IMG/VR virus record: IMGVR_UViG_3300032782_000005
Location: 1 to 64,000 of that record
DNA: 64,000 bases
DNA from: a virus
Strand: one strand, 5' to 3'
Shown: positions 1,875-57,867 of the stretch, piece by piece
Position numbering within the stretch: position 1 is the first letter of the stretch
How the letters are laid out: every line of letters begins with the position of its first letter
The notes under the pieces: model-generated
Seen by the model: only the letters and a program-made list of their open reading frames with translations
Databases searched by the model: none
Told to the model about the DNA's origin: nothing
Translations under genes and position numbers: made by a program

Positions 1875-2018
1875 ATGCCGAAACAATACGAGGCGATCCG
1901 CGACAAGTTCATCAAGGAGGGCATGTCCACCAAGGAGGCCAAGACGCGAGCCGCCAAAATCTTCAACGCGAAGCGGAAGAAGGGCCAGAAGCCCGTCACG
2001 CGCAAGGAACACGAATAA
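1875..2018 (+). CDS. Small basic phage protein, 47 aa
   Basis: Starts four bases after the stop of the surface protein gene. The product is helical and Lys/Arg-rich (MPKQYEAIRDKFIKEG, STKEAKTRAAKIFNAKR, KPVTRKEHE). Such short lysine-rich proteins with a 'GxSxKEAKxxAAxI' core are common in phage structural regions, but their role is unknown. It ends just before a TATAA box and a decayed copy of the palindromic repeat. Confidence 0.65.
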   Translation: MPKQYEAIRDKFIKEGMSTKEAKTRAAKIFNAKRKKGQKPVTRKEHE

Positions 2019-2020
2019 AG

Positions 2021-2065
2021 TATAAGTGAGAGTTTACATTTTCCTACTGGAAATTTTACCAGTTG
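2021..2065 (+). promoter_or_regulatory. TATAA box plus decayed copy of the 22-bp palindrome
   Basis: TATAAG at 2021 starts 23 bp before a diverged copy of the palindrome (2044-2065: CTACTGGAAA, TT, TTACCAGTTG). The same 23-bp spacing occurs at 34484 and 57868. It lies just after a stop codon and before the gene at 2063, so a promoter with an attached operator is plausible. The last three bases of the palindrome (TTG instead of TAG) form the proposed start codon of the next gene. Confidence 0.5.
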
Positions 2066-11209: not shown

Positions 11210-12723
11210 ACGAGACTCTGGAACCCACCATCGCCGACCCCCGCTTCTACGTCCCGCGCGAGGACGTGCTGGAGAAGTTGACGCACGCGCTCACGGACGG
11301 TTACAAGCCCACAATCCCCCTCTGGGCGCTGGGTCACGAAAACGAGCCCATGCCCCAATTGTTCCTGTTCCGGGACGTGGAAAGGATGATGATCCACGGT
11401 CATGTCCGGAACTGCTTGGAAATCTACGAGTCGGGGATCGCAGGCGCAGAATTCTGGGGCGGCCCGAATCCTGACATGCCAGACGACCCGGTGGGCCTGC
11501 CGATCTCGGACAACCCGGAAGTCTCGCGCTTCGTCATGTCGCAGGTAAACCGCTTCTGGGACCGTGGCGTCCCCAAGCTTCAGAAGGCTTACCCCTACGG
11601 CTGGATCGGCTGCGAGGCGATGTACGCCCTCGATCAGCAGAATCAACCAGAGTGGGACGATCTGATCGACTTCTCCCCGTGGGACACGTTCATGCTCCTG
11701 ATTGGGGAAAAGCCGGTCGGCGTGCGCGTCAAGCAGGTTCAGTCCCCCGGCGACAAGAAGGATCACGGGGAAGTCAACCTGTGGCTGGCGACGAAGGACG
11801 TTCCGGCAAAAGGAATCTGGTACGCGCATAATCCTCGTTACAACCAGTTCTACGGCCAGAGCCAACTGATCGGGGCGTGGCGCGACTGGAGGCGTCTGGC
11901 GACAAAGGGCGCGGCTGAGACCGTTCTGGACGGAGGGTTCTTCCGACTGGGTTACTGCGCCCCCTTGATCCGTTACCCCAACGAGGACCTTCAGGTCGCT
12001 CAGGCGGTGCCGGGGACCGCCCCGGACTCGCAGGGGCGTCCCCGCCGACCGGCGCGTGATATGGCCCGCATGATAAGCGAGCAGATGCAGGCCGGGGCGG
12101 GGATGGGTATGCCCTCCGATTGTTACGCGCCCGGAACCGGCGGGGAGGGAAAATACAAGTGGGATGCTCAGGAATGGCGCGGCGAATTCGACGGGAGCCA
12201 CATCATCGCCTACTGCGAGCACCTGCACAAGCAGATCGCCAAGGGCATCGGCACGCCATACGAACTCATCGAGGAGACTCAGAGCGGCGGTTCGGGTGGA
12301 GGTTTTTCCGGCAAGATCGTCCCGGTCGAGGCGTTCCTGACCAAGCAGCAAAGGATCGCCGACGCCATGCTCATGCTGTTCATCAAGCAAATCCTTGGCC
12401 CGCTGGTTCAGTGGCGATGGCCGGGCTCGACGTTCAAGGTCGAAGTGAAGAGCCTTCTCCAAACGAAGCGCAAGCAGCAGGCCGGCGGCGACATCTCGAA
12501 CAAGCCAGGCGTGGACCCGAACATGCCGGCGCCGATGCCAGGGACGCATCAGGGCGACTCACACCATCCCTTGCAGGGCCAGAACCCGCCTCCAGGCCAG
12601 ATGGATCAAGGTTTCGCGCCATCCTCGCCGACGCGGGAACTTCCCTTCAGCCTCAACGCGGCGCGTGAGGATCGCGTTGCCAAACTGGCCGCGCTGATCC
12701 GAAGCATAGGGAGGGCAGCGTGA
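11206..12723 (+). CDS. Phage portal protein
   Basis: 505 residues from GTG overlapping the previous stop. Portal-like motifs are seen along the chain: FRDVERMMIHGHVRNCLEIYES, then WDDLIDFSPWDTFMLL, the WRDWRRLATKGAAETVLDGG clip/stem helices, and near residue 355 GIGTPYELIEETQSGGSGGGFSGK followed by TKQQRIADAMLMLFIKQILGPLVQW. This order is that of Mu gp29/SPP1-like portals, and the next gene encodes the usual Mu F partner. The portal forms the dodecamer at the DNA-entry vertex. The C-terminal 60 residues are Pro/Gln-rich. Confidence 0.8.
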   Translation: MNETLEPTIADPRFYVPREDVLEKLTHALTDGYKPTIPLWALGHENEPMPQLFLFRDVERMMIHGHVRNCLEIYESGIAGAEFWGGPNPDMPDDPVGLPISDNPEVSRFVMSQVNRFWDRGVPKLQKAYPYGWIGCEAMYALDQQNQPEWDDLIDFSPWDTFMLLIGEKPVGVRVKQVQSPGDKKDHGEVNLWLATKDVPAKGIWYAHNPRYNQFYGQSQLIGAWRDWRRLATKGAAETVLDGGFFRLGYCAPLIRYPNEDLQVAQAVPGTAPDSQGRPRRPARDMARMISEQMQAGAGMGMPSDCYAPGTGGEGKYKWDAQEWRGEFDGSHIIAYCEHLHKQIAKGIGTPYELIEETQSGGSGGGFSGKIVPVEAFLTKQQRIADAMLMLFIKQILGPLVQWRWPGSTFKVEVKSLLQTKRKQQAGGDISNKPGVDPNMPAPMPGTHQGDSHHPLQGQNPPPGQMDQGFAPSSPTRELPFSLNAAREDRVAKLAALIRSIGRAA

Positions 12724-15230
12724 ACGACTGGCGCACGCAAGGACTGGAATTCGCCGCGCTCCTCTCTCGCGCTGTGCCTCACGCCGAGTCGCTGGAAGAG
12801 GCCGTCGCCGCCGTGGACATGGCGATGGCCAAAAACGGACAAAAGTTGGAGGAAGAAATTCCTACTGGTAATTTTACCAGTAGGCCGCCGTCTGACGTAA
12901 GCCTCGACGCATTCTTCTCTTACGACATTTTCTCCCGTCGCGCCCAGGGCGTTTTGAACCGCGCCATGGCCGCGATGAACGACCTTTCCGCCTCGGCCAG
13001 ACGGGAATTGAAGGCCGCCATCGGCAAGGAAACGCCTGCGGAGATCGGGCAGGCAGTCATTTCGTTCATTCGGCACTATCGCGGTCAACTTGCTGAACTA
13101 TTGGGCGCGACCAACCTGTCTGCCCTTCTGGCAGGGGCGCGGGAAGTGGCCGATAAATTGCCCCCTGTGCCGCTTCCGGGGCTGGGCAAGCCTCCGCCCC
13201 CATCTTTGCCTCCAGACGCGGCAGCGGGCCTCCTGGCGAAACTGGAGGCCATGCCGGAGATGGAGCGCGCGAAGGAGGTCTACAACCTGCCGGCGGATCA
13301 ACAGGAATGGGCCAAGCAGGCGCTGGCCGTCGGTACAGGTCCGCCCATGCCGCCGTTCACTCCGCCCTCGCCTCCGGCGGATTCTCCGGGCGCAATTCAC
13401 TTCCCAACCATCGAGGAGGCCGTCAAGGACTTGTCCGCTCGGAACGTCGTCTCGCGCGACCAGTACGACCGACTGGACGCAGCCGCGAGGCAGAAGGCGT
13501 TCACCGTTGCAGGAGTTGAATCTCAGGAGACGCTGACGAAGATCAGGGACGCCCTGGCCGAGGTCGTCGCCGAGGGCGCGGACGTGGAGGCGTTCCGGCG
13601 GAAGGTCATGGAGAGGGTCGAGCCGAACACTTTCATGAGTCCGGCTCACATGGACGTGGTTGCCAGAAGCAACATCCAGGCGGCGTTCTCGGACGGGCAG
13701 ATGGCAGTCCTGAATACGCCGTTCGTCCGAAGCGGCTTCCCGTACACGATGTACCATGCGATCCACGACGACCGCGTGCGGCACGACCATTTGGAACTGG
13801 AAAAACTCGGCATCCAAGGAACGAATATCTACCGGATTGACGATCCCGTTTTCCAGACGTTCCGCCCGCCTTGGGATTACAACGATAGATGTGGCTTCAC
13901 GCCGATGAGCGTGAAGTTCGCGGCGGAGAAGGGAATTGATGAGGCGAAGCGTTGGCTCGAAACGAACGTCGAGCCCTCCCCTCCCGCCTTCGTCTCCTGG
14001 CCATCTTTCCGCCCCCCGCCCGAGTTCCAGCGCGCCCTGGCCGGCGCGCCCCTGTCGATCCGGCTGTCGTTGCAGCCGATGGAGATCGACCTAGACGATC
14101 TCCGGGATATTGAACTGGCCGTCGGGGACTGGTCCCCACATCACGGAGACAAGGGAGGCGTCGGCTGGAAGAACAGCGCCACGGGAGAAATCCGTTACCA
14201 GAAGAACCGCCCCGGTACGCGAGGAGAGGGCGAGCAGCCAGGCGGAGCGAGGGTCTTTCGCCCGCACGATTACATCAACGCCATCCATCAGCACGTCCAG
14301 TCCGGGGACAAGACGCGGGCTCACAAGTCATGGCAGTCGGTGCCGAGGGAGCAACGTGCCAAGGTCGCGGCCGGGTTATCGTCGGAGGCAAAGAGCGCGA
14401 TCAGGGAAGCGGCTGGAGGAGCGAAGCCGGCTCCAAAGCCACAGCCGGCGCCACAACCGAAAGCTGCGCCACCGCCGGCCCCAAAACCAACTCCGCCGCC
14501 TTCACCACCATCCGCGCCGCCTCCGCAACAGGCGCCACAACCAGGATCGCCTGAGCGGATCAACGAGGCCGTGGCGGCTTCTGGCCTATCTCCGAAGGCA
14601 TCGGAATCGTTGCGCGGCGTGGCAGCGGCCTTGGCGGCGTCGAAGCACCTGACGCCAGAGCAGAGGAATCATTACTATTCAGCAGCGAAATCCGTGCTGT
14701 CCAGAATGACGCCGGCCGCCATAAACCGCTTCAGGGAAGGGGTGAAGCAGGTTGAATTCCATCCAAATTTAGATACTCTTACGGCGTCTTTTACGAAGGT
14801 ATCTGGAAAATCTGTTGAGGGGACTGTTTTAGGTTTTTACGCATGGAAAACACAAATGCTGTCATTGGATGGCGGCAAAGATGTCCAGATGCGAGCAGAA
14901 GACGTGGTGCCAATGACTGGAGAAACGCATCAGACTTATGCTCATGAATTCGGACATGTCATCGACGGACCGCAAGAGGAATACAGCAGCTCAGTTGATT
15001 GGAGGGCGGCATGGTTGCTGGAACTGGTCGCCCCTTCTGCGCCTGAACGCAACATTCTCACCGGGTACGCCACGACGCATCCGGCGGAAGGATTCGCCGA
15101 ATTCAGCCGTTTGCTTCATGGCATTGGCGAGAGGCCGATGAACGCAGCCGAATTGAACGTTGTGGAGTCCGCATTCCCGAGTTGCAGCGCCTTCTGGAAA
15201 GCGAAGGGATTATGGCCGAGCCCCCAGTAA
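12720..15230 (+). CDS. Mu F-like head morphogenesis protein fused to a zincin metallopeptidase
   Basis: 836 residues, GTGA overlap with the portal. Residues about 300-410 hold the Mu F/SPP1 gp7 core (HMDVVARSNIQAAFSDGQ, HDDRVRHDHLELEKLGI, PPWDYNDRCGFTPMS). A Pro/Ala/Lys linker (about 568-612) leads to a C-terminal domain with HEFGH at 742-746 and a downstream ThPAEGFAEFS segment, the HExxH plus glutamate layout of zincin peptidases. A perfect copy of the palindromic repeat is read in frame at residues 48-55 (TGNFTSR). The peptidase part (14660-15080) is clearly richer in A/T than the rest, suggesting separate acquisition. Such polyvalent head proteins can be injected with the DNA; that is inference here. 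Confidence 0.75.
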   Translation: MNDWRTQGLEFAALLSRAVPHAESLEEAVAAVDMAMAKNGQKLEEEIPTGNFTSRPPSDVSLDAFFSYDIFSRRAQGVLNRAMAAMNDLSASARRELKAAIGKETPAEIGQAVISFIRHYRGQLAELLGATNLSALLAGAREVADKLPPVPLPGLGKPPPPSLPPDAAAGLLAKLEAMPEMERAKEVYNLPADQQEWAKQALAVGTGPPMPPFTPPSPPADSPGAIHFPTIEEAVKDLSARNVVSRDQYDRLDAAARQKAFTVAGVESQETLTKIRDALAEVVAEGADVEAFRRKVMERVEPNTFMSPAHMDVVARSNIQAAFSDGQMAVLNTPFVRSGFPYTMYHAIHDDRVRHDHLELEKLGIQGTNIYRIDDPVFQTFRPPWDYNDRCGFTPMSVKFAAEKGIDEAKRWLETNVEPSPPAFVSWPSFRPPPEFQRALAGAPLSIRLSLQPMEIDLDDLRDIELAVGDWSPHHGDKGGVGWKNSATGEIRYQKNRPGTRGEGEQPGGARVFRPHDYINAIHQHVQSGDKTRAHKSWQSVPREQRAKVAAGLSSEAKSAIREAAGGAKPAPKPQPAPQPKAAPPPAPKPTPPPSPPSAPPPQQAPQPGSPERINEAVAASGLSPKASESLRGVAAALAASKHLTPEQRNHYYSAAKSVLSRMTPAAINRFREGVKQVEFHPNLDTLTASFTKVSGKSVEGTVLGFYAWKTQMLSLDGGKDVQMRAEDVVPMTGETHQTYAHEFGHVIDGPQEEYSSSVDWRAAWLLELVAPSAPERNILTGYATTHPAEGFAEFSRLLHGIGERPMNAAELNVVESAFPSCSAFWKAKGLWPSPQ
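12862..12883 (+). repeat. 22-bp palindromic repeat, copy inside the Mu F-like gene
   Basis: Perfect arms CTACTGGTAA and TTACCAGTAG around TT; the inverted symmetry extends one more base each side (C and G). It is preceded by AAATTC. It is translated as TGNFTSR and disrupts nothing in the reading frame. Confidence 0.95.
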
Positions 15231-15526
15231 AGCGACGCCAGATGCTTCAGGAGTTGTTCTCCCGCCGCGTGGAGATTCCCGGCGGCGGCCATGCCGACAT
15301 CGGCTTGGAGTCTCCTGCCGCATCCTTCTCCATCGCCGAACCCGGCGGCAAGGACAAGGACCCCGACCCCGATGAGGCTGATGGCGTCGAATGCGCCATT
15401 TGCGGCAAGACGAAATGCGATCACTGGAAGGACGACGACCTCCCGAAAAAGCCGGACCCAGTGGACGAAGAACTATGGAAACAATGTGTCGCCTGCGCCA
15501 AAACGCCGGCGTCTACGAGCGGCTGA
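15212..15526 (+). CDS. Zinc-binding-like acidic protein, 104 aa
   Basis: The ATG lies 19 bases inside the end of the previous gene, with GAAGGG upstream. The N-terminus is basic and helical; the middle has CAICGKTKCDHW and the C-terminus CVACAKT, giving a possible zinc knuckle with Asp-rich spacers (KDKDPDPDEADG). The CGKTKCDHW motif looks like a truncated zinc ribbon. Function unknown. Confidence 0.55.
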   Translation: MAEPPVKRRQMLQELFSRRVEIPGGGHADIGLESPAASFSIAEPGGKDKDPDPDEADGVECAICGKTKCDHWKDDDLPKKPDPVDEELWKQCVACAKTPASTSG

Positions 15527-15573
15527 CTTTAGCTGCAACCCCGGATCACCCCGTTCATTTTAGGAGCCTGAAA

Positions 15574-16036
15574 ATGTCCGAACAGATCATCCCTGCGGAT
15601 GTGGAAAAGACGCTCATAGGCAAGGTGGACGGCAAGAGCGTCTTCCTTGTGGACGGGGACGAGATCAAAGTAAAATACGAAATGGACTATCTTTGAAGGC
15701 GGCAATGGCTACCGCTATCCATTCATCCCCAAGGACGAAATCTGGATTGATGGGGTGGAAGTCCAGTCGCAGGACATCGCCTTCATCATCTACCACGAAG
15801 CCTACGAGTCGCGGCTGATAAAGCAGGGCCTCAGTTACGACGATGCCCACAAGCGGGCCAACGGCGTCGAGCGGCAGTTGCGGCTGCGGCAGTTGCGGCA
15901 GCGCGAGGAAGAAGCCTCCGAATACGCCTACGGCACCGAGCCTCCCTCGTCCGGCTGGGAGTGCGTCGGCGAAATGAAATGGCGGCGCACGGGCAAAAGG
16001 ATACAATCGGACGGGACACACGGAGAAAAAACATGA
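15574..16036 (+). CDS. HExxE-type conserved phage protein interrupted by a CTT-TGA +1 frameshift site
   Basis: The first frame (15574-15696) gives 40 residues ending VKYEMDYL and stops at CTT-TGA (15691-15696). Reading GAA at 15695 in the +1 frame continues as EGGNGYRYPFIPKDEIWIDG ... IIYHEAYESRL ... YDDAHKRANGVE to the stop at 16036 (153 residues in total). The joined protein matches a widespread phage/planctomycete family with a DYxEGGH-type motif before an HExxE helix. UAU-CUU-UGA is the shift site of the RF2 gene prfB, but the upstream AGGGGG stimulator is missing, so a one-base mutation or sequencing error is the alternative. The second half has no good start of its own. Confidence 0.7.
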
Positions 16037-16479
16037 CGGCAGTTGCAGAAGTCGAGACGAAGTTCGAGCGGCAACAGGACGGCTCCCTGATCTACAAGCG
16101 CGAGCCCAAGCCCACCGACCCCTCGATCCTCCGCACGGCCCAAAACAACGTCCACATCTTCGAGCGCATCTGCACCAAGCCGCGCCAGACCGGAACGGAC
16201 CCAATGACGCTGGCCGTGCGCATGGCGCCAGGCGTGCCCCGCGAAGAGGCGGAGAAGATGCTTCTCGAACGGATCGAGTCGGCCAAGGCCAAGTACGGCA
16301 AGCTTGTCATCGACGCAGACACCGGCGAGGAGCGCTGCGTCGAGCCGGCCGTCCTGACCTTCGCGCGCGTGGGTCTGAAGGAAGGCTGGGTGATCGCCGA
16401 GTCGGTCTACGCCTCCAGGCAAAAGCCGCTGGAGATTCACGCCGTCGTTCACGCGGACGGGTCCGTCGAGGGGTACTGA
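16033..16479 (+). CDS. Hypothetical protein, 148 aa
   Basis: ATGA overlap with the frameshift gene. Charged and mixed alpha/beta (ILRTAQNNVHIFERICTK, EEAEKMLLERIESAKAKYG, KPLEIHAVVHADGSVEGY). The C-terminal strands could form a small barrel. No known family; it lies in the connector/fibre region. Confidence 0.5.
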   Translation: MTAVAEVETKFERQQDGSLIYKREPKPTDPSILRTAQNNVHIFERICTKPRQTGTDPMTLAVRMAPGVPREEAEKMLLERIESAKAKYGKLVIDADTGEERCVEPAVLTFARVGLKEGWVIAESVYASRQKPLEIHAVVHADGSVEGY

Positions 16480-16766
16480 TGGTCTTCTACGACAGGGCGA
16501 CGCGCGTGGTCATGAACGACCACGGCGGCCTCACCCTTCATTTCGACGGCTTCCAGATCAGCAACACCATCGGCGGCGAGTGGTGCATGAGCCGCCCTGA
16601 AGGCAATCGCTGGGTCGAGCAGACGTACCACAAGAGCATCATGGAAGCCTTCTGGGCCGGTATGAAGTGGCCTGAAAATGTTCCGCCCGACCAGTTCATC
16701 ATCGAGCCTCCATGCCAACCAACGCGCTCTTCCAGGCGTACCAACAAGGCGTGCAGGCGGCCGTAA
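16479..16766 (+). CDS. Hypothetical protein, 95 aa
   Basis: TGATG overlap with the previous stop. The first 75 residues are a compact Trp/His-rich unit (HGGLTLHFDGFQISNTIGGEW, TYHKSIMEAFWAGMKWPENVPP). The last 20 residues overlap the next gene by 55 bp in another frame and are Arg-rich, so they may be a by-product of the overlap. Function unknown. Confidence 0.5.
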   Translation: MVFYDRATRVVMNDHGGLTLHFDGFQISNTIGGEWCMSRPEGNRWVEQTYHKSIMEAFWAGMKWPENVPPDQFIIEPPCQPTRSSRRTNKACRRP

Positions 16767-17971
16767 CCTTGCCCCTGCAAGACCCGATCCCCGAACGCGC
16801 CAACAGGATTCGCTTCGGACGGGAGAGGGCGCACAGGCTCGAACTGGCGAACTCGCTCTACTGCCCCGCCGGAAGATGGCCGTCACGAGGCTACGTTCTC
16901 GTCCTTCGCAGCGACCTCAACAACGTCCAGAACAAGTACGCCACGAATTTCCAGTTGAACTTCACCGATGTTAAGACCGGAACCTCCCTTACCTTCCAGA
17001 ACCTCTCGATCATCCATGCCTGGTGCGTCAGCCGGGGGAACACCGCCGATCCGGATGCGGTATACCTCGTTGAGTTGACAGACAACCGTGGAATCCTCTG
17101 GTCGCCGTGGTTTCAGTTCCCCACGACAAGTCAATACAACATCGTCGCGCCGGCGTATCCGGGGCAGTATTACTCAGGGTCGATGAACGCGGGAGTTCCG
17201 TGGGACTGGAACGGGATGGTCGGGGACCTGTGGGGCCAGATGGGGACGTTTCTGGGAACTTTTCCGGGGTTGCCTTCGTTTCCCACTGCCACACCGGAAG
17301 GGTTCAGTTTCCCCGGCGTCGGCGCGTGGGACGCCCTGAACCGAATCCTCGAACTGACCGGGATGCAGGTCTCCGCGGATCACACCAACTCCCCTCAGTA
17401 CGGGATCGTCGTCGTCGGCGCGACCGATGCTGCCTTTGCAGGCTTGCAGGCCAAGTACGAGGGGGACGCGATCGAGGACGATTACGAGTACATCGACCTC
17501 GGCGCGGGGCGCGTTCCCGGCAATATCATCGTTCTTTTCCACCGCAGGAATGAATACTACGGGACCGAGGAGACGGTTCGCAGAGACAGCCTCCAGTGGT
17601 GGACGACGCCCTTTCATCAGGAGACGATCACCGCGACGCAGGCCGGTTTCTCTCAATTCGCTTCCGCCCCAGGAACGGAGTATATTTGGGACGACTTCAC
17701 GGTCCGGTTCGACATCGACGGGAATGCCTTGGCGGCTGACGTGGCGCAAGCGAACGCGATAGCGATCCAGAGAGCCGGCCAGTATTACCAGAGGGTCTAC
17801 CGCGGCACGTTCGGTTATCTGCGGCAGGTTTACACGGGCGTCCTTCCATTCATCACCGGCTCGATGGTGGACGGAATAAGGTGGGCGCAGGCTCGGACGG
17901 GGCAAGGGTTCACGACGACAATCACTCGAGGCCCCCAACCGCCGTTCGGGGAGTTGTGGGATGGATCGTGA
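16712..17971 (+). CDS. Large structural protein upstream of fibres, 419 aa
   Basis: Rich in Trp, Tyr, Phe and Gly with long beta segments (RGYVLVLRSDLNNVQNKYAT, AVYLVELTDNRGILWSPWF, DYEYIDLGAGRVPGNIIVLFHRR, YQRVYRGTFGYLRQVYTG). The C-terminal part contains a DSLQWWTTPF stretch. This composition and the place before two fibre genes suggest a baseplate hub or fibre-adaptor protein. The ATG lies inside the previous gene. No family recognised. Confidence 0.5.
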   Translation: MPTNALFQAYQQGVQAAVTLPLQDPIPERANRIRFGRERAHRLELANSLYCPAGRWPSRGYVLVLRSDLNNVQNKYATNFQLNFTDVKTGTSLTFQNLSIIHAWCVSRGNTADPDAVYLVELTDNRGILWSPWFQFPTTSQYNIVAPAYPGQYYSGSMNAGVPWDWNGMVGDLWGQMGTFLGTFPGLPSFPTATPEGFSFPGVGAWDALNRILELTGMQVSADHTNSPQYGIVVVGATDAAFAGLQAKYEGDAIEDDYEYIDLGAGRVPGNIIVLFHRRNEYYGTEETVRRDSLQWWTTPFHQETITATQAGFSQFASAPGTEYIWDDFTVRFDIDGNALAADVAQANAIAIQRAGQYYQRVYRGTFGYLRQVYTGVLPFITGSMVDGIRWAQARTGQGFTTTITRGPQPPFGELWDGS

Positions 17972-18938
17972 CTCGACCAATCTTCAGGCGCCGCGTCTTG
18001 GGCCAACCGCCCCCCTGTATCCGGAGCTTCCCCAACTCTGCGAGGTCAGCGGACCCGTCACCGTCAACAACATCTATCCGGGGTTCGTTCAGCAGTTCTC
18101 ACCGGCCCTGGTTCTGAGACGCCGCGAGGCGTGCTGGGTCCACGAGCCAAACGGACTGCAACTTTATCCCATTCCCGGTCTCTCGCGCCCCGTCTACGAC
18201 TGCCGACTTGTCTCCTCGTATCATGGCCTCCCTCTTTACGTTGCGACCTGTTGCCCGACGCAGGGATTTTCGTCGGCTTCCTCATCCAGTTCCGCCGCGC
18301 CGGTCGCGCGAGCGTCGCTGGGAAAAACTCAAGGAGGCTACCCCGTCCCCGTCTCAACGCTGACGCTTTCCTCACTCACGATCCCCAGCAATTCCCTCCT
18401 CGTCGCCGTCGCAAGCGTCGTCGGCAGCGCCGGTCTGGTCGGATCAGTGCGCTGGGGGCCATACACGCTGGGCGTCGATGCGGAGGCGATCCTGCCCGGC
18501 GCTGCGTCATTGGCCGGCAGTCTGGCGATCCTGTCCGCGACGATTGATTCTGGCGGGACGAACGATCTGGTTCTGACCTCAACGCTGCCCGGCGCGTTGA
18601 CTCTTCAGGCCATGCGCGTCTCCGGCCTTTACGACGACGTGCCGGATCAGTCGGCTTCGGCGACTGGCGTGGCCTCAGCGCCGGATTCCGGCTCGACTGG
18701 AAACACGACCGCCGTTCCCGAATATGTCCAGGGCGCGTTCCTGATGCTCACACCGCCCTCGTGGTCGTGGCTGAATGGGTTTCTGTCCGGCGGGCAGGAT
18801 TTGAGCCAGACCGTGCAGGGCGTCTCGGTCTCGGTCACAGAAGGGTGGAAGCAATTGGCGGCGCTTCAGGCGGTCGATGCCGCGCTGGGCGGCGGGAACG
18901 CGGCGGCGTGGGCCGGGGCTTGCGTCACCTATTTCTGA
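17961..18938 (+). CDS. Tail fibre protein, paralogue 1
   Basis: 325 residues; starts 11 bases before the previous stop. The N-terminal 100 residues (LGPTAPLYPELPQLCEVSGPV, FVQQFSPALVLRRREACWVHEPN, RLVSSYHGLPLYVATCC) share the same pattern with the next protein, so they probably attach both to the virion. A short Ser-rich linker (SSASSSSSAAP) leads to a beta-sandwich C-terminus (SSLTIPSNSLLVAVASV, GWKQLAAL). The different C-termini suggest different ligands. Confidence 0.65.
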   Translation: MDRDSTNLQAPRLGPTAPLYPELPQLCEVSGPVTVNNIYPGFVQQFSPALVLRRREACWVHEPNGLQLYPIPGLSRPVYDCRLVSSYHGLPLYVATCCPTQGFSSASSSSSAAPVARASLGKTQGGYPVPVSTLTLSSLTIPSNSLLVAVASVVGSAGLVGSVRWGPYTLGVDAEAILPGAASLAGSLAILSATIDSGGTNDLVLTSTLPGALTLQAMRVSGLYDDVPDQSASATGVASAPDSGSTGNTTAVPEYVQGAFLMLTPPSWSWLNGFLSGGQDLSQTVQGVSVSVTEGWKQLAALQAVDAALGGGNAAAWAGACVTYF

Positions 18939-18945
18939 GGTTGCG

Positions 18946-19866
18946 ATGGACGACAACCTCACCGGCATTCGACCGCCCTACCTTGGGCCAATTCCTCCCG
19001 GCTATCCTCCCCTTCGCCAACTCATGCGGGTCACAGGGCCTTCGGTCGGAGGCGTCGCGCCTGCCCTATTGGAACAGTGGGACGACAAGAACCTCGTCCT
19101 GCGCGACCGTGAGCCCGCGTTCGCGTGGGAGCCGAATCTTCTGAGTTTCCCCAAAGGAGTCTTTCAAGGACGCCTCATCTCGACCTGGCAGGGCAAGCCT
19201 CTCTTCGTCGTCAGTCTGGCCTGCTGCGGTGGAATTCCGGCGAGTTCTTCCAGTCCGTCGGTCGCGTCACCCTCGGTTCCGTCTTCAAGTTTTCCATCGT
19301 CGAGGCTGCCGTCGTCTTCCGGCATCCCATCTCCGTCGTCGCCATCCTCGCCGAAGCCGTCGCTCAGTTCCCAACCATCGGTAAGCCTTCCATCTACCAG
19401 TCCGCCGCCAACATCGTCGGTTCAGCCGCCTCCCGTTTCGTCGGCCGCTCCGAGCGCGAGCCCGTCGTCCAGTTCATCTTCCTCATCGAGCGGTTCGAGT
19501 TCTTCCAGTTCGTCATCTGGAATTGCCGGGACGATTTCAACGACGTGCTGCCCGAACCTTCTGCCGACGACGCTTTACGCAACCTTTTCGGGCTTCCTGA
19601 GCGGGACCGTGCCGATTCAATGGGCTGGCGGCCAAACGTGGACCGCAAGCACGACCCTGTGCGGCTTCACGTCGTCGGTTCAGTTGGTGTGCTCCGGAAG
19701 TGTGTGGACGCTGCAAATCTCGGCAGGCGGCGGGTCATCATGCTTCGTGCCTACGACATCAGCCCAGGCTGGAGGAATGTGCCTCCCCTTCATGCAGACG
19801 TTCAACATGACTGGCCTGAGCGGATGCTGCGCCGGCCAGAACTTTACGGTCGTCGTGACTGAGTGA
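18946..19866 (+). CDS. Ser/Pro-rich tail fibre protein, paralogue 2
   Basis: 306 residues from the ATG after GAGGTTGCG. Residues 1-100 repeat the anchor domain of the previous protein (LGPIPPGYPPLRQLMRVTGP, LVLRDREPAFAWEPN, GRLISTWQGKPLFVVSLACC). Residues about 100-195 are almost only Ser, Pro and Ala. The C-terminal 100 residues are Cys-rich (ISTTCCPNLLP, TASTTLCGFTSSVQLVCSG, SGCCAGQNFTVVV) and may be disulfide-bonded. The Ser-rich part is a candidate site for O-linked sugars. The 3' end overlaps the convergent minus-strand gene by 23 bp. Confidence 0.65.
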   Translation: MDDNLTGIRPPYLGPIPPGYPPLRQLMRVTGPSVGGVAPALLEQWDDKNLVLRDREPAFAWEPNLLSFPKGVFQGRLISTWQGKPLFVVSLACCGGIPASSSSPSVASPSVPSSSFPSSRLPSSSGIPSPSSPSSPKPSLSSQPSVSLPSTSPPPTSSVQPPPVSSAAPSASPSSSSSSSSSGSSSSSSSSGIAGTISTTCCPNLLPTTLYATFSGFLSGTVPIQWAGGQTWTASTTLCGFTSSVQLVCSGSVWTLQISAGGGSSCFVPTTSAQAGGMCLPFMQTFNMTGLSGCCAGQNFTVVVTE

Positions 19867-20239
19867 TCCGGGCCACGACCTTTCTGGTTATGTCCCGGTC
19901 CCCGCGGATGAGCCACGGACCCATGCGAACACCGTCCCAGTCCATGACGTGGCTGGGGCCGATCCGGGAACAACACACGACGCCCTTCCACCGCGACGAG
20001 TCCTCCTCGGAGGTCGTCAAATGATTGAGATCGTCAAAGGGCACGTCGTCAACGCTGAGGTAGAGGCAGGAAGGGCAGACGGAGGAATGGAGGCCGAGAT
20101 CGGAAGTGCGACTGACGAACTCGGCGTAATCGCTCGGCGGATTCTCCCGTGGATGCGCCATCTTCCACGCGGCGGCGAACAGACAGGCTCCGGCCAGCGC
20201 GACCGGGACGAGGACGAAGAGGATATTGCGGCGTTTCAT
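19844..20239 (-). CDS. Membrane-anchored or exported protein, 131 aa
   Basis: Minus strand, ATG at 20239 with AGGAGG eight bases upstream. MKRRNILFVLVPVALAGACLF is a signal anchor or signal peptide, followed by a periplasm-type soluble part with CPSC (SSVCPSCLYLSVDDVPF) and VVCCSR cysteines and a SRWKGVVCC strand. It ends inside the convergent fibre gene. It is the last gene of a three-gene minus-strand island. Possible envelope or superinfection-exclusion role; the family is not known. Confidence 0.65.
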   Translation of the reverse strand: MKRRNILFVLVPVALAGACLFAAAWKMAHPRENPPSDYAEFVSRTSDLGLHSSVCPSCLYLSVDDVPFDDLNHLTTSEEDSSRWKGVVCCSRIGPSHVMDWDGVRMGPWLIRGDRDITRKVVARITQSRRP

Positions 20240-20250
20240 GGATGAGCCTC

Positions 20251-20487
20251 CTATCGGATTATACGCGGCAAGCACGGCCCCATCGGCAGGTTCTTCCTCT
20301 CCAGCCTCACCGCCTTCTTCGCCGCCCAGCGCAGGTGCCTCATGGCATAGTCCAGCGGGATGGAGCGCCACTCCTGATCGTCGGGCTGGGTGACGATGCC
20401 GGGGCGCGCCTTGGGGACGAGGTAGTCGAGCCGGTCCATCAGGGACAGGCCCAAAAGGATGTGGGCGGCGCGGCGGGAGAGGATCAT
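20251..20487 (-). CDS. Small basic protein, 78 aa
   Basis: Minus strand; ATG at 20487 follows GGGG at six bases; an upstream ATG at 20514 would add nine residues. The protein is basic (MILSRRAAHILLGLSLMDRL, YAMRHLRWAAKKAVRLERKN). It may be helical or partly membrane-associated. It lies between the two other minus-strand genes. No family recognised. Confidence 0.5.
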   Translation of the reverse strand: MILSRRAAHILLGLSLMDRLDYLVPKARPGIVTQPDDQEWRSIPLDYAMRHLRWAAKKAVRLERKNLPMGPCLPRIIR

Positions 20488-20552
20488 GCGAGCCCCTTTT
20501 GTTCGGCGATCCATTCGGTCACGGAGCGGCGTTAGTCATGGGTGGACTCCTT

Positions 20553-20978
20553 TCAGGAAACGTGAGACGCGGTGATTCCGTAATGGCGGTAAGACGCCGT
20601 GCCGGAGTAGGTTGAGCGAAGCGTCCGAATCAGCCCATCAGGATCGTTTATGTGCGGATAGTTGAGGCTCCCATCTCTATTATTCCGTGGAGACCGACTC
20701 CAATGGCTGTCCGAGAATGGCACCTCGTTTCCTCCCTTGAAGACTCCGCATTCGTGCAGTCGTTTCTTGAGCCACAGACGCCACATTCCCCGGCTCCAGT
20801 AGTGGAAAGCGACGTTCCTCATTTCCGCAAGAACCCGCTCGCAGGCTTGGCCCAGGGCGTGAACGTCAACGCCAACCTGATATTCCCACATGAGGCGCAC
20901 GGCGAGCGTCGGCCAGTCGCGACGGTTGACTTCGTGAAAGATGATGCATTCCGGTCGTTCTGGCGTGAAACTCATCAT
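20553..20978 (-). CDS. Hypothetical minus-strand protein, 141 aa
   Basis: Minus strand; first of two adjacent ATG codons at 20978, ten bases after AGAGGAG. The N-terminal half is a soluble alpha/beta-like unit (ECIIFHEVNRRDWPTLAVRLMW, HALGQACERVLAEMRNVAFHYW); the C-terminal half is polar (NYPHINDPDGLIRTLRSTYSG). It heads the minus-strand island, so its promoter should lie in 20980-21840. Function unknown. Confidence 0.55.
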   Translation of the reverse strand: MMSFTPERPECIIFHEVNRRDWPTLAVRLMWEYQVGVDVHALGQACERVLAEMRNVAFHYWSRGMWRLWLKKRLHECGVFKGGNEVPFSDSHWSRSPRNNRDGSLNYPHINDPDGLIRTLRSTYSGTASYRHYGITASHVS

Positions 20979-21074
20979 GGGTATTCGACTCCTCTTCTTT
21001 CCACCTGCCCAAGGTGACAACCCATCCCCTAGGCGCATGGAAGTGATTTCACAATCACAACCCGCGTGCCGCTA

Positions 21075-21362
21075 TCACGGACAATGCGGATGGGTGACTA
21101 GCGAAAGTGTACCACTACCGGCTTCCGGCCAGAAGATCGGGGCGATGCCCAGCTCGCACTCTTCCTGAATCAGACAGCAGAGATTGTGGCAGAGGAACTT
21201 GCACAGCACGCGATTCGAGCAACCAGATACTTGAGTTCCCGTTCTAAAAGCTGGGGGCACGGCTCGTGGCCGTGCCCAAGGTGCGTCACAAGTTCTCGGG
21301 AGGGGTGCGCTACGGCGCCAACCATCACGCACACTTCCGAGTAGAGGGACGTAATCTACCAT
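21075..21362 (-). pseudogene. Transposase C-terminal remnant
   Basis: The minus strand encodes RVLCKFLCHNLCCLIQE followed by ELGI and PIFW, very close to the conserved C-terminus of DDE insertion-sequence transposases (LCKxLCHNxCxLIQxxxELGI). Upstream residues do not continue a transposase in a single frame and a strong hairpin (21255-21277) interrupts the expected junction, so only a decayed fragment is left. It lies between the minus-strand island and the glycosylation island and may mark how one of them was acquired. Confidence 0.55.
21255..21277. other. GC-rich hairpin in the accessory gap
   Basis: GGGCACGG (21255-21262) and CCGTGCCC (21270-21277) enclose a 7-nt loop. No T-run follows on either strand. 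It sits inside the transposase remnant and may be part of a former insertion junction. Confidence 0.5.
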
Positions 21363-21695
21363 GAAGTGCCGTAAGAAAGCAATCCCGCTTTCGCCGGATG
21401 AAGACCAACTTCTACGTCATTTGTACGTAGAACGACGGATTCCGAGCCGGACGACCCTATCGACGTTCAGGTGGACGTAGTTTGATGACCCCATGCCCAT
21501 CTCCTTCGCTTGTACTCCGAACGAATAGCGCACCTCCCCTACCCCTCCATACTTTTCGCGTGGAATCCATGCGCAGCGGCCTTTCGCCACGTCTCACGAC
21601 GTTGCTGTTTTATCGGTCGTAATTAGCCTTGCCGCTGGCCGTGTCACTTCGCAGACCTCTTGATTCAGCGTTGCCCATCCGGGGGCTATGGCCTA
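21363..21695. other. Intergenic stretch without a recognised gene
   Basis: About 330 bases between the transposase remnant and the hairpin pair. I see no convincing open frame, RNA gene or repeat here. It has a lower GC content than the neighbouring coding regions and must hold the promoter of the minus-strand island unless that lies further left. Confidence 0.4.
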
Positions 21696-21735
21696 GACGG
21701 CGAGAAGTGCAATTTGATATGCTGATCTCGCCGTC
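21696..21735 (+). other. Perfect 10-bp hairpin upstream of the terminator
   Basis: GACGGCGAGA (21696-21705) pairs with TCTCGCCGTC (21726-21735) around a 20-nt A/T-rich loop. The arm sequence is close to that of the terminator stem nine bases downstream, so alternative pairing between the two hairpins is possible, as in attenuators. Confidence 0.55.
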
Positions 21736-21743
21736 ACGTGTTT

Positions 21744-21787
21744 GGCCGTCGAGAAGTCTTGGCAGGCTCTCGGCGGCCTTTTTCTTT
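21744..21787 (+). terminator. Intrinsic terminator before the glycosylation island
   Basis: GGCCGTCGAGA (21744-21754) pairs with TCTCGGCGGCC (21768-21778), eleven pairs with one G-U, followed by TTTTTCTTT. It would stop transcripts entering from the left and isolate the gene at 21837. Confidence 0.8.
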
Positions 21788-21823
21788 CAGGCCCACTCTA
21801 CCGCGCCCGCCCCGAGAATCAAA

Positions 21824-21829
21824 TAGAAT
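21824..21829 (+). promoter_or_regulatory. TAGAAT -10 box, leaderless type
   Basis: TAGAAT ends seven bases before the ATG at 21837, which has no ribosome site. The same arrangement is seen at 43955, 54058 and (eight bases) 23099. No TTG-type -35 is visible here, so this member is the weakest. Confidence 0.4.
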
Positions 21830-21836
21830 CTTCTTC

Positions 21837-23090
21837 ATGAAGCCCTGCGGCCATCCCCCGGACCAGCCCGTCGAATCCTGCCGTGTGTGTTTCTTGTACT
21901 CCACCCGCCTCGACTACCGCGCCCTCTGGGACGCTACTGGTAATTTTACCAGTAGAAAATTGTCGTATCTCAAATGCGCCTTTTTAAGCCGCCGCGCCCG
22001 CAACGAAGACGGCACGGTGAAGACGCGAGCCTGCGCCCCCTGCGGCGGCAAACAACTGGAGGTATTCCGGTGCGTCTGTCCGTCGCTTAGAATCGGCGAA
22101 TCGGATCACGAGACGACGCTGGCCGAATGCGAGACGTGCCCACACAGGACGAGGGGAACGATGCCCGACGCGCGGAAACTGATCCTCAGGAACCACCTTT
22201 CCCCCGGCGACGTTCTCGTGATGACCGCCGCGATCCACTCGCTGCACAAGGCGCACCCCGGAAGGTTCCGGATCGCCGTCGATACAGCCTGCCCGGCGAT
22301 CTTCGAGAACAGCCCGGAGGTCGAGCCGCTGGATAAGGCGCGCGAGGAGAAATGGGAGGAAATGGATACGCATTATCCTTTGGTGAACGAGTGCAACCAG
22401 AGGGGCATCCATTTCATGCAAGCGTACTGCTCATATTTCGAGGACAATCTGCAAGTCCGCGTTCCACTGGCGACGAACAGGCCGATGGTGTGGCTCAGCG
22501 CCGAGGAGAAGGGCTGGATGAATCAGGTCGAGGAGGCGTTCAAATACAAGGGGAGGTTCTGGCTCGTCAACGCCGGGCGAAAGAATGACTACACCTGCAA
22601 GCACTGGGGAACGGAATCCTTCCAGCGCGTCGTCGATTCACTCCGGGGCAAGGTCGTGTTCGTGCAAGTCGGCGCGGCAGAGCATCATCATCCACCGCTC
22701 AGGAACGTCCTGAACCTCGTCGGCAAGACCGACCTGAGGCAATTGATCCGCCTCTGCTGGCACGCGGACGGCGTTCTGTGCGGCGTGACGATGCTCCACC
22801 ATTTGGCGGCGGCCCTGGAAAAACGCTGCGTGACGATCATGGGCGGGCGCGAGCCGGTCCAATGGAACTCGTACCCTCGTTGCCAACTCCTGCACACCAT
22901 CGGCTCGCTCTCCTGCTGTCGAGACGGAGGGTGCTGGAAGTCGCGCGTCATCGCCCTGCCCGACAACGCCGAACAGAACAACTCGCTTTGCGAGCAACCT
23001 CAACCGGGCGACGAACCGATTCCCCGTTGTATGAGCCTTATCCGCCCCGACGACGTGGCGTCGAAGGTCGCGCTCTTGACGACGGCATGA
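21837..23090 (+). CDS. GT9-family glycosyltransferase (heptosyltransferase-like)
   Basis: 417 residues. The N-terminal 95 residues are Cys/His-rich (CGHPPDQPVESCRVC, CAPCGGKQLEVFRCVC, CETCPHR), probably a zinc-binding module seen in planctomycete proteins. The rest follows the GT9 layout: LILRNHLSPGDVLVMTAAIHSLHKAHPGRF, FWLVNAGRKNDYTCKHWG, VVFVQVG, NLVGKTDLRQLIRLCWHADGVLCGVTMLHHLAAALEK, which is the donor-site motif of ADP-heptose transferases. A palindromic repeat is read in frame after RALW (TGNFTSR). It heads the glycosylation island and has a leaderless-type start. Confidence 0.75.
   Translation: MKPCGHPPDQPVESCRVCFLYSTRLDYRALWDATGNFTSRKLSYLKCAFLSRRARNEDGTVKTRACAPCGGKQLEVFRCVCPSLRIGESDHETTLAECETCPHRTRGTMPDARKLILRNHLSPGDVLVMTAAIHSLHKAHPGRFRIAVDTACPAIFENSPEVEPLDKAREEKWEEMDTHYPLVNECNQRGIHFMQAYCSYFEDNLQVRVPLATNRPMVWLSAEEKGWMNQVEEAFKYKGRFWLVNAGRKNDYTCKHWGTESFQRVVDSLRGKVVFVQVGAAEHHHPPLRNVLNLVGKTDLRQLIRLCWHADGVLCGVTMLHHLAAALEKRCVTIMGGREPVQWNSYPRCQLLHTIGSLSCCRDGGCWKSRVIALPDNAEQNNSLCEQPQPGDEPIPRCMSLIRPDDVASKVALLTTA
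21934..21955 (-). repeat. 22-bp palindromic repeat, copy inside the GT9 gene
   Basis: Perfect arms around TT (+ strand). The A/T flank AATTTT lies on the minus side, so the element is inverted relative to 12862. It is translated as TGNFTSR in a linker between the Cys-rich N-terminal segments. Confidence 0.95.
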
Positions 23091-33318: not shown

Positions 33319-34478
33319 AGACCGCGCTGCCGCTGAAGGACACGTTCACGTCCACGGGGCACAAATTTTTTGCCCATCAGGAAACGATGCGCAACTTGCG
33401 GAACGGCAAGGGTCAGCCGGTCGTCACGCACTTGATGCCCACATCGGTCTGCGCTCACTCTTGCGCCTTCTGCTCCGTCCATCATCGCCCGCACGAGGTT
33501 CTGCCGCTGGCCGACATGACGACCTATCTCGACATCCTGCTCCGCTACGGCCTGAAGGCGGTCATCATCAGTGGCGGCGGCAACCCGATCTTATACAGGT
33601 GCCCCGACACGGGAGCCGACTTCAACCGGCTTGTCGATGAGGTCTATCGGCGGGGACTGGAGATCGGCGTCATCAGCGACGGAATGCCATTGCGAGTTGA
33701 CGAGCCGACGATGCGGCAGATGTGGAAGGCTGTGCATCCGGAGACAATCGACAAGTTGACTTGGCTGCGGATCAGCATGGCCGGCTTGGATCACCAGGAG
33801 AACTGCGTCCACGTCCCAGACGTGGACCCGTCACGGACGACGCTGGGCTTTTCCTACGTCCTGCATGACATCTATGACGAACCGGCGGATAAGGCTCACG
33901 GCAAAGTATCCACGCCAGCCGACCTCATCACCGTCGGTTACGAACGACTGCATAACGACAACATTAAGCCAGTTCGGTTCGCCGAGGACCGCGTTCCGGT
34001 GCTGACCAGCCAGATCGACGAGATCGTGCGGAAGTACAAACCGACCTATGTTCGATTGCTCCCGAACTGCTTGCAACCGGAGCTGATCCAGCAGCGGTGC
34101 GATCTGCTCCAACGGATGGCCGACGCCATCGACCCGGACGTGGTGTTCGTGCAGTACAAGCCGCCGGCCGCGCCGAATGTATGCCTGCTCGGCAGCATTC
34201 ATCCAGTCCTCAATACAGATGGTTTTTGTTATCCTTGCGACAGCTGTGTATTAAACGACTCAGCAGGTCACAAATTCGCCAACCCATGGAGGATGTGTCA
34301 CTGGAGCGAGATCGCCAGCATCTACGAAAGACCGCTCCGCAGCCTGATAGATAACCCACATGAGAGATGTCCAGGGTGCGTATTTACCCAAAGCAACCTC
34401 TTGCTGGAAAAGGTGTGGAAGGGCGAGGTCGAGCCGACGCCTCCGGTCGAGACGCCGGAGCACGTCAACTTCGTCTAA
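33315..34478 (+). CDS. Radical SAM enzyme with SPASM-like C-terminus
   Basis: 387 residues from GTG. MPTSVCAHSCAFCSVHH is the CxxxCxxC cluster motif; VIISGGGNP follows as the glycine-rich strand. The C-terminal part has a second Cys set (GFCYPCDSCVLND, MCHW, CPGCVFTQ), typical of SPASM-type auxiliary clusters. Substrate not predictable; in the island it may modify a sugar or a peptide. It is followed by the promoter-like palindromic element. Confidence 0.8.
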   Translation: MKTALPLKDTFTSTGHKFFAHQETMRNLRNGKGQPVVTHLMPTSVCAHSCAFCSVHHRPHEVLPLADMTTYLDILLRYGLKAVIISGGGNPILYRCPDTGADFNRLVDEVYRRGLEIGVISDGMPLRVDEPTMRQMWKAVHPETIDKLTWLRISMAGLDHQENCVHVPDVDPSRTTLGFSYVLHDIYDEPADKAHGKVSTPADLITVGYERLHNDNIKPVRFAEDRVPVLTSQIDEIVRKYKPTYVRLLPNCLQPELIQQRCDLLQRMADAIDPDVVFVQYKPPAAPNVCLLGSIHPVLNTDGFCYPCDSCVLNDSAGHKFANPWRMCHWSEIASIYERPLRSLIDNPHERCPGCVFTQSNLLLEKVWKGEVEPTPPVETPEHVNFV

Positions 34479-34483
34479 AGAAG

Positions 34484-34528
34484 TATAATAGCTATCGTTA
34501 AATTTCCTACTGGTAAAATTACCAGTAG
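34484..34528 (+). promoter_or_regulatory. Promoter-like box plus perfect palindromic repeat
   Basis: TATAAT at 34484, the small palindrome ATAGCTAT (34488-34495), an 11-bp gap, then the perfect 22-bp palindrome (34507-34528, AA core). The same ATAGCTAT-11 bp-palindrome order is seen at 57868-57912. It fills the gap between a stop codon and the next genes, suggesting an operator-controlled promoter. No clear -35 box is seen. Confidence 0.6.
34507..34528 (+). repeat. 22-bp palindromic repeat, intergenic copy
   Basis: Perfect arms around AA, preceded by AAATTTC. Intergenic, 13 bp before the first ATG downstream. Confidence 0.95.
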
Positions 34529-43871: not shown

Positions 43872-43893
43872 CTACTGGTAAAATTACCAGTAG
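43872..43893 (-). repeat. 22-bp palindromic repeat, intergenic copy
   Basis: Perfect arms around AA (+ strand). The AATTTT flank is on the minus side, so it is inverted relative to 34507. It lies 75 bp upstream of the RHH gene. The gap 43772-43967 also holds the next promoter and nothing else recognised. Confidence 0.95.
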
Positions 43894-43932
43894 AAAATTA
43901 TCCCCTCTCATTTATAGCACATCAAGCTCCTC

Positions 43933-47032: not shown

Positions 47033-47658
47033 AGATAATTGAGTGCGAGCAGGGCAGTTCTGAGTGGTTTGAGGCTCGAAAAGGCGTTCCGACAGCTTCA
47101 AGATTCGGCATGGTCCTGACTGCGAAGACGATGCGCTTATCGGCCCAGGCCGACGAACTCATAAACCAACTTATAGGAGAAAAGTTATCTCTGATTCCGC
47201 CCGAAGGCGTTGAGCATTTTACAAATCGCGCTATACGCTGGGGCGAGCAGACCGAGGACGAGGCGCGCGCTTGGTATTCGCTAGAGACGAACCATGATGT
47301 GCAGCAGGTCGGCTTTTGCCTCACCGACGACGGACGTTTCGGCTGTTCGCCTGACGGCCTGATTGGCGACGACGGCGTTTTGGAGTTGAAGTGCCCCCAG
47401 GCGGCGACCCAGGTGTCCTATCTGCTGGCAGGCGGCCTTCCCAGCGAATATCGCGCCCAGTGCGCCGGCGCGTTGATCGTCACAGGCCGTCCATGGCTCC
47501 ATTTTGTCTCGTACTCGCCCGGCCTGCCGCCATTGCTCGTCAAGGTCCAACGGGACGAATACGTGGAAAAACTCGCCGCCGCCCTGGAGGAATTCCACAT
47601 CCGCTACCAGGACGCCCTCGAACGCATCACGTCGATGGGTGGAGGGAGGGGCGAATGA
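47029..47658 (+). CDS. yqaJ-like: YqaJ-type viral recombinase (alkaline exonuclease)
   Basis: 209 residues, ATGA overlap with the HNH gene. SEWFEARKGVPTASRFGMVL and GFCLTDDGRFGCSPDGLIGDDGVLELKCP contain the catalytic D and E-x-K of lambda-exonuclease-like nucleases. It resects double strands for the ERF annealer: together they form the phage Red-like recombination system. The first 60 codons are A/T-rich next to the HNH insertion. Confidence 0.9.
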   Translation: MKIIECEQGSSEWFEARKGVPTASRFGMVLTAKTMRLSAQADELINQLIGEKLSLIPPEGVEHFTNRAIRWGEQTEDEARAWYSLETNHDVQQVGFCLTDDGRFGCSPDGLIGDDGVLELKCPQAATQVSYLLAGGLPSEYRAQCAGALIVTGRPWLHFVSYSPGLPPLLVKVQRDEYVEKLAAALEEFHIRYQDALERITSMGGGRGE

Positions 47659-48041
47659 ACGTCGGCGATCTGACCCACCGGCAGCGCGAATTCCTGTGCG
47701 CCATCTGGGATTTTCTCGTCTACCAGGGCGAGTATCCCACCGTGCGGCAACTATGCGATCTCCTAGACATCAATTCGCCCAACGGCGTCATGAGTCACAT
47801 CATGTATTTGAAGAAAAAGGGCTTTGTGGAATGGCACGGCAAACATCGTGGCGTCGGCGATGGGCGGCCTTCACGGGCGCGCTGCGTCCGCCTCAGCGGC
47901 GTTCGGATGAGACCCGTTTTTGACGACACATTGGATGGCCAGGAGATGCGCAAGGTGATCTGCGAGCCTGTCTGCGCAGCAACCGCTGGCCCTCATGAGT
48001 CGTCAGCGTCGGCCATGACAGGAGAACCCGAATTAGCTTAA
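47655..48041 (+). CDS. LexA-type winged helix protein without protease domain
   Basis: 128 residues, ATGA overlap. LTHRQREFLCAIWDFLVYQGEYPTVRQLCDLLDINSPNGVMSHIMYLKKKGFVEW is close to the LexA N-terminal DNA-binding domain. The C-terminal half lacks the Ser-Lys protease and is low in known motifs. It could act as a constitutive repressor or a dominant LexA mimic. Candidate binder of the palindromic repeats. The start of the next gene is 60 bases downstream. Confidence 0.75.
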   Translation: MNVGDLTHRQREFLCAIWDFLVYQGEYPTVRQLCDLLDINSPNGVMSHIMYLKKKGFVEWHGKHRGVGDGRPSRARCVRLSGVRMRPVFDDTLDGQEMRKVICEPVCAATAGPHESSASAMTGEPELA

Positions 48042-57862: not shown

Positions 57863-57867
57863 AGGGG

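What the first reader, a model, noticed from the sequence alone, without database searches (positions are those of the whole stretch)
12862..21955. Palindrome inserted in frame in two unrelated proteins
Both gene-internal perfect copies (Mu F-like protein, GT9 enzyme) are read in the same phase as TGNFTSR, and the decayed copy in the ParB-like gene is also in phase (STGKISST). The element is compatible with coding and sits in linkers. This resembles Rickettsia palindromic elements that insert in frame into genes.
Basis: partly seen in the sequence, partly recalled or inferred. Interest (0 to 1): 0.75.

Follow-up and report, generated by a model that had tools for sequence, protein, structure and literature searches.

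The report
Dispersed phage operator cassette, partly in genes
A bacterial virus carries nine copies of a 53-letter DNA cassette (a mirror-image protein-docking site plus an AT-rich tail) spread evenly round its genome, at least one of them slotted into a protein gene without breaking it, and it probably docks a repressor that the virus itself encodes.

Summary
CTACTGGTAA(AA/TT)TTACCAGTAG is present in the Mu F and GT9 genes in one phase (TGNFTSR), decayed in a ParB-like gene. The whole 79,484-bp phage contig has nine copies: six perfect, two with 2 mismatches, one with 4; five lie between genes. The palindrome is half of a larger asymmetric ~53-bp cassette: a 31-nt AT-rich arm always adjoins it on one side (z=15 against shuffles; other side z=0.3). 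Copies are evenly spaced (circular P about 5e-4). Two relative contigs (about 41 kb) have none. They show empty sites at three places: 18 codons missing in Mu F, and two gene junctions closed up. The GT9 copy adds no residues against a relative's paralogue. The palindrome is far more conserved (92%) than the arm (47%), without compensatory changes, so it looks like a protein-binding site under selection, not a Rickettsia-type selfish repeat. It matches the E. coli LexA-box skeleton TACTG-N10-CAGTA, and the phage encodes a stand-alone LexA DNA-binding domain (47655-48041). Best reading: a dispersed operator cassette (stoperator/SPBRE-like) that spread by insertion, once in frame. Binding and repression are inferred, not shown.

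The parts
2013..2065 (+). Cassette copy 1 (intergenic; palindrome 2044-2065, 2 mismatches). Its last three bases are TTG, the probable start codon of gene 2063-2950; upstream stop TAA at 2016-2018
   Evidence: empty site in G002 where TAA is followed directly by ATG
12831..12883 (+). Cassette copy 2, in frame in the Mu F-like gene (codes KNGQKLEEEIPTGNFTS); palindrome 12862-12883 perfect
   Evidence: 18-codon gap in G001
21934..21986 (-). Cassette copy 3, reversed, inside the GT9 gene; palindrome 21934-21955 perfect (DATGNFTSRKLSYLKCAFL)
   Evidence: no extra residues against the G001 paralogue
34476..34528 (+). Cassette copy 4, intergenic; begins at the stop codon TAA of gene 33315-34478, TATAAT at -23, palindrome 34507-34528 perfect
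43872..43924 (-). Cassette copy 5, reversed, intergenic, about 75 bp upstream of ORF 43968-44162; palindrome 43872-43893 perfect
48548..48600 (+). Cassette copy 6, decayed (4 mismatches), in frame in the ParB-like gene (KNGQMGEDKKSTGKISS)
57860..57912 (+). Cassette copy 7, intergenic; begins at stop codon TAA of gene 55964-57862; palindrome 57891-57912 perfect; RBS and ATG of gene 57926-58240 follow 13 bp later
   Evidence: Copies 8 (64628-64680 +, in ORF 64181-64855) and 9 (70236-70288 -, intergenic) lie in the same contig beyond the window (L001)
12720..15230 (+). Mu F-like minor head protein gene, host of copy 2
   Evidence: PF04233 E=3.7e-9; phrog_220 1.6e-30
21837..23090 (+). GT9 glycosyltransferase gene, host of copy 3
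   Evidence: PF01075 E=1.8e-10
47655..48041 (+). Stand-alone LexA DNA-binding domain protein (128 aa, no LexA protease domain): candidate binder of the palindrome
   Evidence: PF01726 E=1.5e-12, above gathering score; PDB LexA 3k2z 1.5e-6, 1lea 5.7e-4; phrog_362 transcriptional repressor
48101..49159 (+). ParB-like gene, host of the decayed copy 6; rival binder
   Evidence: tblastn to annotated ParB-family proteins of plasmids, 34-45% identity; no Pfam match

Best explanation
It is a dispersed operator cassette of about 53 bp: a 31-nt AT-rich arm (with a -10-like TATAAT in the intergenic copies) followed by a 22-bp LexA-box-type palindrome. Shown: nine copies, one-sided arm, even spacing, absence from two relatives, three empty sites, palindrome conserved far beyond the arm. 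Inferred: the copies spread in this lineage by insertion, mostly at gene junctions and at least once in frame (Mu F). The phage's own stand-alone LexA DNA-binding-domain protein (47655-48041), or another LexA-type protein, binds the palindrome as a dimer. At gene junctions it represses the adjoining start region; inside genes it acts as a roadblock or as a silencing/segregation site, as L5 stoperators and SPbeta SPBRE sites do. In-gene copies survive because the phase TGNFTS is open, hydrophilic and falls in linkers.
For: Nine copies against 0 in shuffles. Arm similarity z=15 on one side, z=0.3 on the other; each arm significant when left out. Palindrome 92% against arm 47% mean pairwise identity, with AT-ending codons kept in GC-rich genes, so selection acts on DNA sequence. 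Even spacing, circular CV 0.29, P about 5e-4. Empty sites in G001/G002 at 12862, 2044 and 70236. TACTGGTAAAATTACCAGTA has the outer halves and spacing of the E. coli LexA box TACTG(TA)5CAGTA (PMC12211044). LexA DNA-binding domain encoded in the phage, with S39 and N41 of the DNA-contacting residues kept (contacts listed in PMC3091678; alignment).
Against: The LexA link rests on a 5-bp half-site with matching spacing (about 1/1000 by chance, but I tested it after seeing the gene) and one gene. Three of five contact residues differ from E. coli LexA. The phage protein lacks the LexA dimerisation domain, and its structure model is poor (pLDDT 55). No -35 box is found. The orientation is mixed (six +, three -) although nearly all genes run +. 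GT9 shows no insertion. Relatives do not cover the region of the LexA-like gene, so co-occurrence could not be tested.
Confidence: 0.5

Rival explanations
1. Selfish palindromic repeat like Rickettsia palindromic elements or REPs: copies insert at random, are tolerated where they stay open, and decay.
For: Repeated, absent from relatives, empty sites at three places, in-frame copy in Mu F, one decayed copy.
Against: The palindrome is almost invariant while the arm has drifted to 47% identity; neutral copies should decay evenly. Copies are evenly spaced. No transposase of the RAYT kind was seen among the proteins scanned (not every gene was scanned). GT9 shows no added residues.
Confidence: 0.2
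2. Centromere or global-regulator site of a ParB/KorB-type protein (phage-plasmid partition or long-range silencing).
For: Three ParB-like genes (48101-49159; 70750-71535, phrog_4715 7e-18; L001:7645-8454, phrog_12305 1.6e-21). The last two and the palindromes are both absent from the G002 contig at the homologous place. Dispersed, evenly spaced sites. A related 26-bp palindrome (CACTTCCGGCAAATTTACCGGAAGTG, 71105-71130) lies inside 70750-71535.
Against: No ParA ATPase was identified among the proteins scanned. ParB N-terminal domains are common in phages as nucleases. Known ParB sites have no AT-rich one-sided arm (own knowledge).
Confidence: 0.2
3. RNA hairpin (terminator, processing or translation element).
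For: The RNA folds a 9-10 bp stem, z -2.2 to -3.5.
Against: No U-tract follows; no terminator-like site is found around copy 7. Differences between copies break pairs instead of compensating (2044, 48579, 64659). Sequence, not only pairing, is kept. Copies occur in both orientations.
Confidence: 0.06
4. Target of the unknown host's own LexA or another host regulator.
For: LexA-box skeleton. Host LexA control of a temperate phage is known (GIL01, PMC4551915).
Against: Nine sites, four of them inside structural, glycosylation and other genes, are more than host control needs. Host and its LexA box are unknown. Only one exact 22-mer in 84,980 prokaryote genomes, without the arm.
Confidence: 0.15

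Closest known systems
Mycobacteriophage L5 / Cluster A stoperators (PMC6550527)
   Same: Many copies of one short repressor site dispersed through a phage genome, some at promoters, most elsewhere; repressor blocks elongation
   Different: L5 sites are 13 bp, asymmetric, up to 30 per genome and mostly in one orientation to transcription; here a 22-bp palindrome with a one-sided AT-rich arm, nine copies, mixed orientation, LexA-like not L5-type repressor
SPbeta repeated element SPBRE and MrpR (PMC10516654)
   Same: Phage-specific repeated element at dispersed intergenic sites bound by the phage's master repressor
   Different: 15-bp motif, promoter regions, recombinase-like repressor; no in-frame copies described there
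E. coli LexA box
   Same: TACTG-N10-CAGTA outer halves and spacing
   Different: Core GTAAAATTAC instead of TATATATATA, so CTGG rather than CTGT; dispersed in a phage; candidate binder has only the DNA-binding domain
Rickettsia palindromic elements (own knowledge; mentioned in PMC3733652)
   Same: Palindromic repeat found in frame inside unrelated proteins
   Different: Here 53 bp, mostly intergenic, binding-site-like conservation, in a phage, nine copies
T4-type PeSL mobile promoter/stem-loop cassettes (from memory, paper not held)
   Same: Short mobile cassette with a promoter-like part and a stem-loop at phage gene junctions
   Different: No complete sigma-70 promoter found here; in-frame gene copies; palindrome looks like a protein site

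Membership tests
Rickettsia-type palindromic element | Insertion in frame into unrelated proteins, shown by gap in homologues | tested here: inconclusive
   Met for Mu F (18 codons), not met for GT9, unclear for ParB-like
Rickettsia-type palindromic element | Whole repeat (100-150 bp) similar between copies | tested here: not met
   53 bp; only the palindrome is conserved (92%), arm 47%
GTAG-type REP | Imperfect palindrome with unpaired GTAG tag at one end, mobilised by RAYT | tested here: not met
   CTAC/GTAG are paired inside the stem; no RAYT seen in the Pfam and PHROGs scans, which did not cover every gene
Phage stoperator/operator system | Many dispersed near-identical sites in the phage genome | tested here: met
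   Nine copies, evenly spaced
Phage stoperator/operator system | Phage-encoded repressor that binds the site | not testable with these tools
   Candidate LexA DNA-binding-domain gene 47655-48041; binding needs experiment
Phage stoperator/operator system | Predominantly one orientation to transcription | tested here: not met
   Arm orientation six + and three - while nearly all genes run +; the palindrome itself is symmetric
LexA box (E. coli type) | CTGT-N8-ACAG core, TACTG(TA)5CAGTA consensus | tested here: inconclusive
   TACTG-N10-CAGTA met; fourth core base is G, not T; centre AT-rich but not TA repeats
parS / ParB site | Bound by cognate ParB with ParA partner | not testable with these tools
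   ParB-like genes present; no ParA identified among proteins scanned

The most novel reading that the evidence does not exclude
A phage silences or organises its genome through a mobile operator cassette, read by a stand-alone LexA DNA-binding domain, that has spread into intergenic and coding DNA alike, so that a repressor site is also translated as part of a virion protein.
Probability: 0.3. Interest if true: 0.7.

Novelty: new variant of a known kind. Interest (0 to 1): 0.5.

Why it matters
If true, it shows how a phage can build a dispersed operator network by spreading one cassette, including into coding sequence, instead of evolving each site by point mutation. It gives a concrete repressor-site pair to test, and a case where protein sequence is shaped by a DNA-binding site.

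Tried and rejected
(1) Palindrome in IMG/VR, exact: none. Relaxed 18-mer: 77 loci, none with the arm; in the one with two matches (L042) they lie in tandem coding-like repeats, so unrelated. (2) Palindrome in 84,980 prokaryote genomes: one hit, in a transposase-like remnant of Paraburkholderia humisilvae, inside a 32-bp palindrome; its flanks do not match the arm, so probably coincidence. (3) Relatives by Mu F, ParB-like and helicase queries: none; GT9 and terminase queries gave G001 and G002. (4) A phage with a LexA-like domain (MW202482) has no repeated palindrome. (5) Intrinsic terminator and complete sigma-70 promoter: not found. (6) Structure model of the LexA-like protein: low confidence, not used. 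(7) Target-site duplications: none evident at the three empty sites, but relatives are too diverged (about 65% DNA identity) to judge. (8) 'Same phase' as strong evidence: weakened, because only two phases are open.

Full report
What is there. The window is bases 1-64000 of a 79,484-bp viral contig, 61.6% G+C. One related contig (G002) runs from homologues of genes at 66-79 kb straight into homologues of genes at 1.9-9 kb, so the genome is circular or circularly permuted. A scan of the whole contig found six perfect copies of CTACTGGTAA-NN-TTACCAGTAG (12862, 21934, 34507, 43872, 57891, 70236), two with 2 mismatches (2044, 64659) and one with 4 (48579). The next-best place has 5 mismatches (71107). 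None is expected by chance. The centre is always AA or TT.

The element is larger than the palindrome. Laying the copies side by side, each turned so that its AT-rich flank points the same way, shows a 31-nt arm that always adjoins the palindrome on one side. Ungapped mean identity of the flank is 0.467 against 0.283 for shuffles (z=15); the other flank is at background (z=0.3). Each arm scores significantly when left out of its own profile, including the GT9 copy. A 53-column profile gives exactly nine hits (53.7-77.0), nothing else above background, and none in the relatives. In the three gene-internal copies with + orientation the arm is open and codes hydrophilic KNGQKLEEEIPTGNFTS, KNGQMGEDKKSTGKISS and ETGQSEGEESATGNFTS. 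In 34507 and 57891 the arm starts exactly with the stop codon TAA of the upstream gene; in all three + intergenic copies (2044, 34507, 57891) that stop is in the same phase. The four intergenic copies 2044, 34507, 43872 and 57891 carry TATAAG, TATAAT, TATAAA and CACAAT at the same place, but no -35 box.

Was it inserted? G001 and G002 together cover about half of the genome. At 2044 the relative has TAA followed at once by ATG, while here 44 nt lie between stop and start; the start TTG is the mutated end of the palindrome, and the following protein keeps its length. At 70236 the relative's genes overlap by ATGA, while here 57 nt (the cassette plus 4 nt) separate them. In Mu F the relative lacks 18 codons. 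The simplest alignment is one 54-nt gap, the cassette plus 1 nt; tblastn prefers three gaps, one of exactly 24 nt over the palindrome. In GT9 the only available homologue of that part, a paralogue in G001 at about 31% identity, has the same length, with KC-(Y/F)-L aligned to the arm-coded part. So there the cassette was not simply added: it replaced sequence, arose in place, or the comparison is too distant. The ParB-like copy lies in a variable linker.

Why a binding site. Among nine copies the palindrome is 92% identical and the arm 47%; among the six perfect copies the arms are still only 50% alike. Mutations seen in the palindrome break pairs, none compensate. Inside GC-rich genes the AT-ending codons are kept. 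So the exact DNA sequence is under selection, not just pairing or a peptide. The spacing is more even than random: circular CV 0.29, P about 5e-4. This is a post hoc test.

What binds it. The phage encodes a 128-aa protein at 47655-48041 that is a LexA DNA-binding domain without the LexA protease domain (PF01726 1.5e-12; LexA structures). The E. coli LexA box is TACTG(TA)5CAGTA (PMC12211044); the phage palindrome is TACTG-GTAAAATTAC-CAGTA, the same half-sites at the same spacing. Of the contacting residues Ser39, Asn41, Ala42, Glu44 and Glu45 (PMC3091678), the first two are kept, which would fit a kept CTG and a changed fourth base. This is inference. A chance match of a 5-bp half-site with fixed spacing is about 1/1000, but I looked after finding the gene. 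ParB-like proteins are the main rival, all the more because two of their genes are missing, like the palindromes, from the homologous place of G002.

Comparison. Dispersed repressor sites are known: L5 stoperators (PMC6550527) and SPbeta SPBRE with MrpR (PMC10516654). Palindromic repeats inside genes are known too: Rickettsia elements and REPs (PMC3733652). This element works most like the first two and is a formal member of neither: orientation is mixed and binding is untested. It differs in being a 53-bp cassette that shows empty sites and that sits in frame in a virion protein gene.

Verdict. The in-frame insertion holds for Mu F, fails for GT9 on present evidence, and is open for the ParB-like gene. 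The Rickettsia comparison is replaced by a dispersed operator cassette, with a LexA-type protein as the most likely reader.

Noticed in passing
window 58848-59144 (+): 98-aa ORF ending in three GRPR motifs (SGRPRIHP, PGRPRIRP, PGRPRKHP), i.e. AT-hook-like; could bind AT-rich DNA such as the cassette arm.
   Followed up: no
L001:7206-7231 (contig 71105-71130): Related 26-bp palindrome CACTTCCGGCAAATTTACCGGAAGTG inside a ParB-like gene; 5 mismatches to the element, no arm.
   Followed up: partly
window 34609-35301, 46418-47032; L001:12669-13547 (-): Three HNH-type endonuclease genes or candidates (46418: NUMOD4 + HNH_3; the other two by eye); the first lies directly downstream of cassette copy 4.
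   Followed up: no
L007:3578-3609 (Paraburkholderia humisilvae): 32-bp perfect palindrome containing the identical 22-mer, in frame (LPTGKITSRQLL) in what looks like a degraded transposase; flanks unrelated to the phage arm. Probably coincidence.
   Followed up: partly
window 21837-38175: Block of sugar/nucleotide and other metabolic genes (GT9, cytidylyltransferase, TylF-like methyltransferase, radical SAM, PfkB), unusual for a phage of this size.
   Followed up: no
window 40215-41618: Papain-family cysteine protease gene (PF00112, 1.3e-30) in a phage.
   Followed up: no
window 55964-57862: 632-aa protein with a long Ser/Pro/Ala low-complexity stretch, directly upstream of cassette copy 7.
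   Followed up: no
window 60432-60464: 13-bp-arm inverted repeat GACCGGAGCGCCG...CGGCGCTCCGGTC, single copy, hairpin-like.
   Followed up: no
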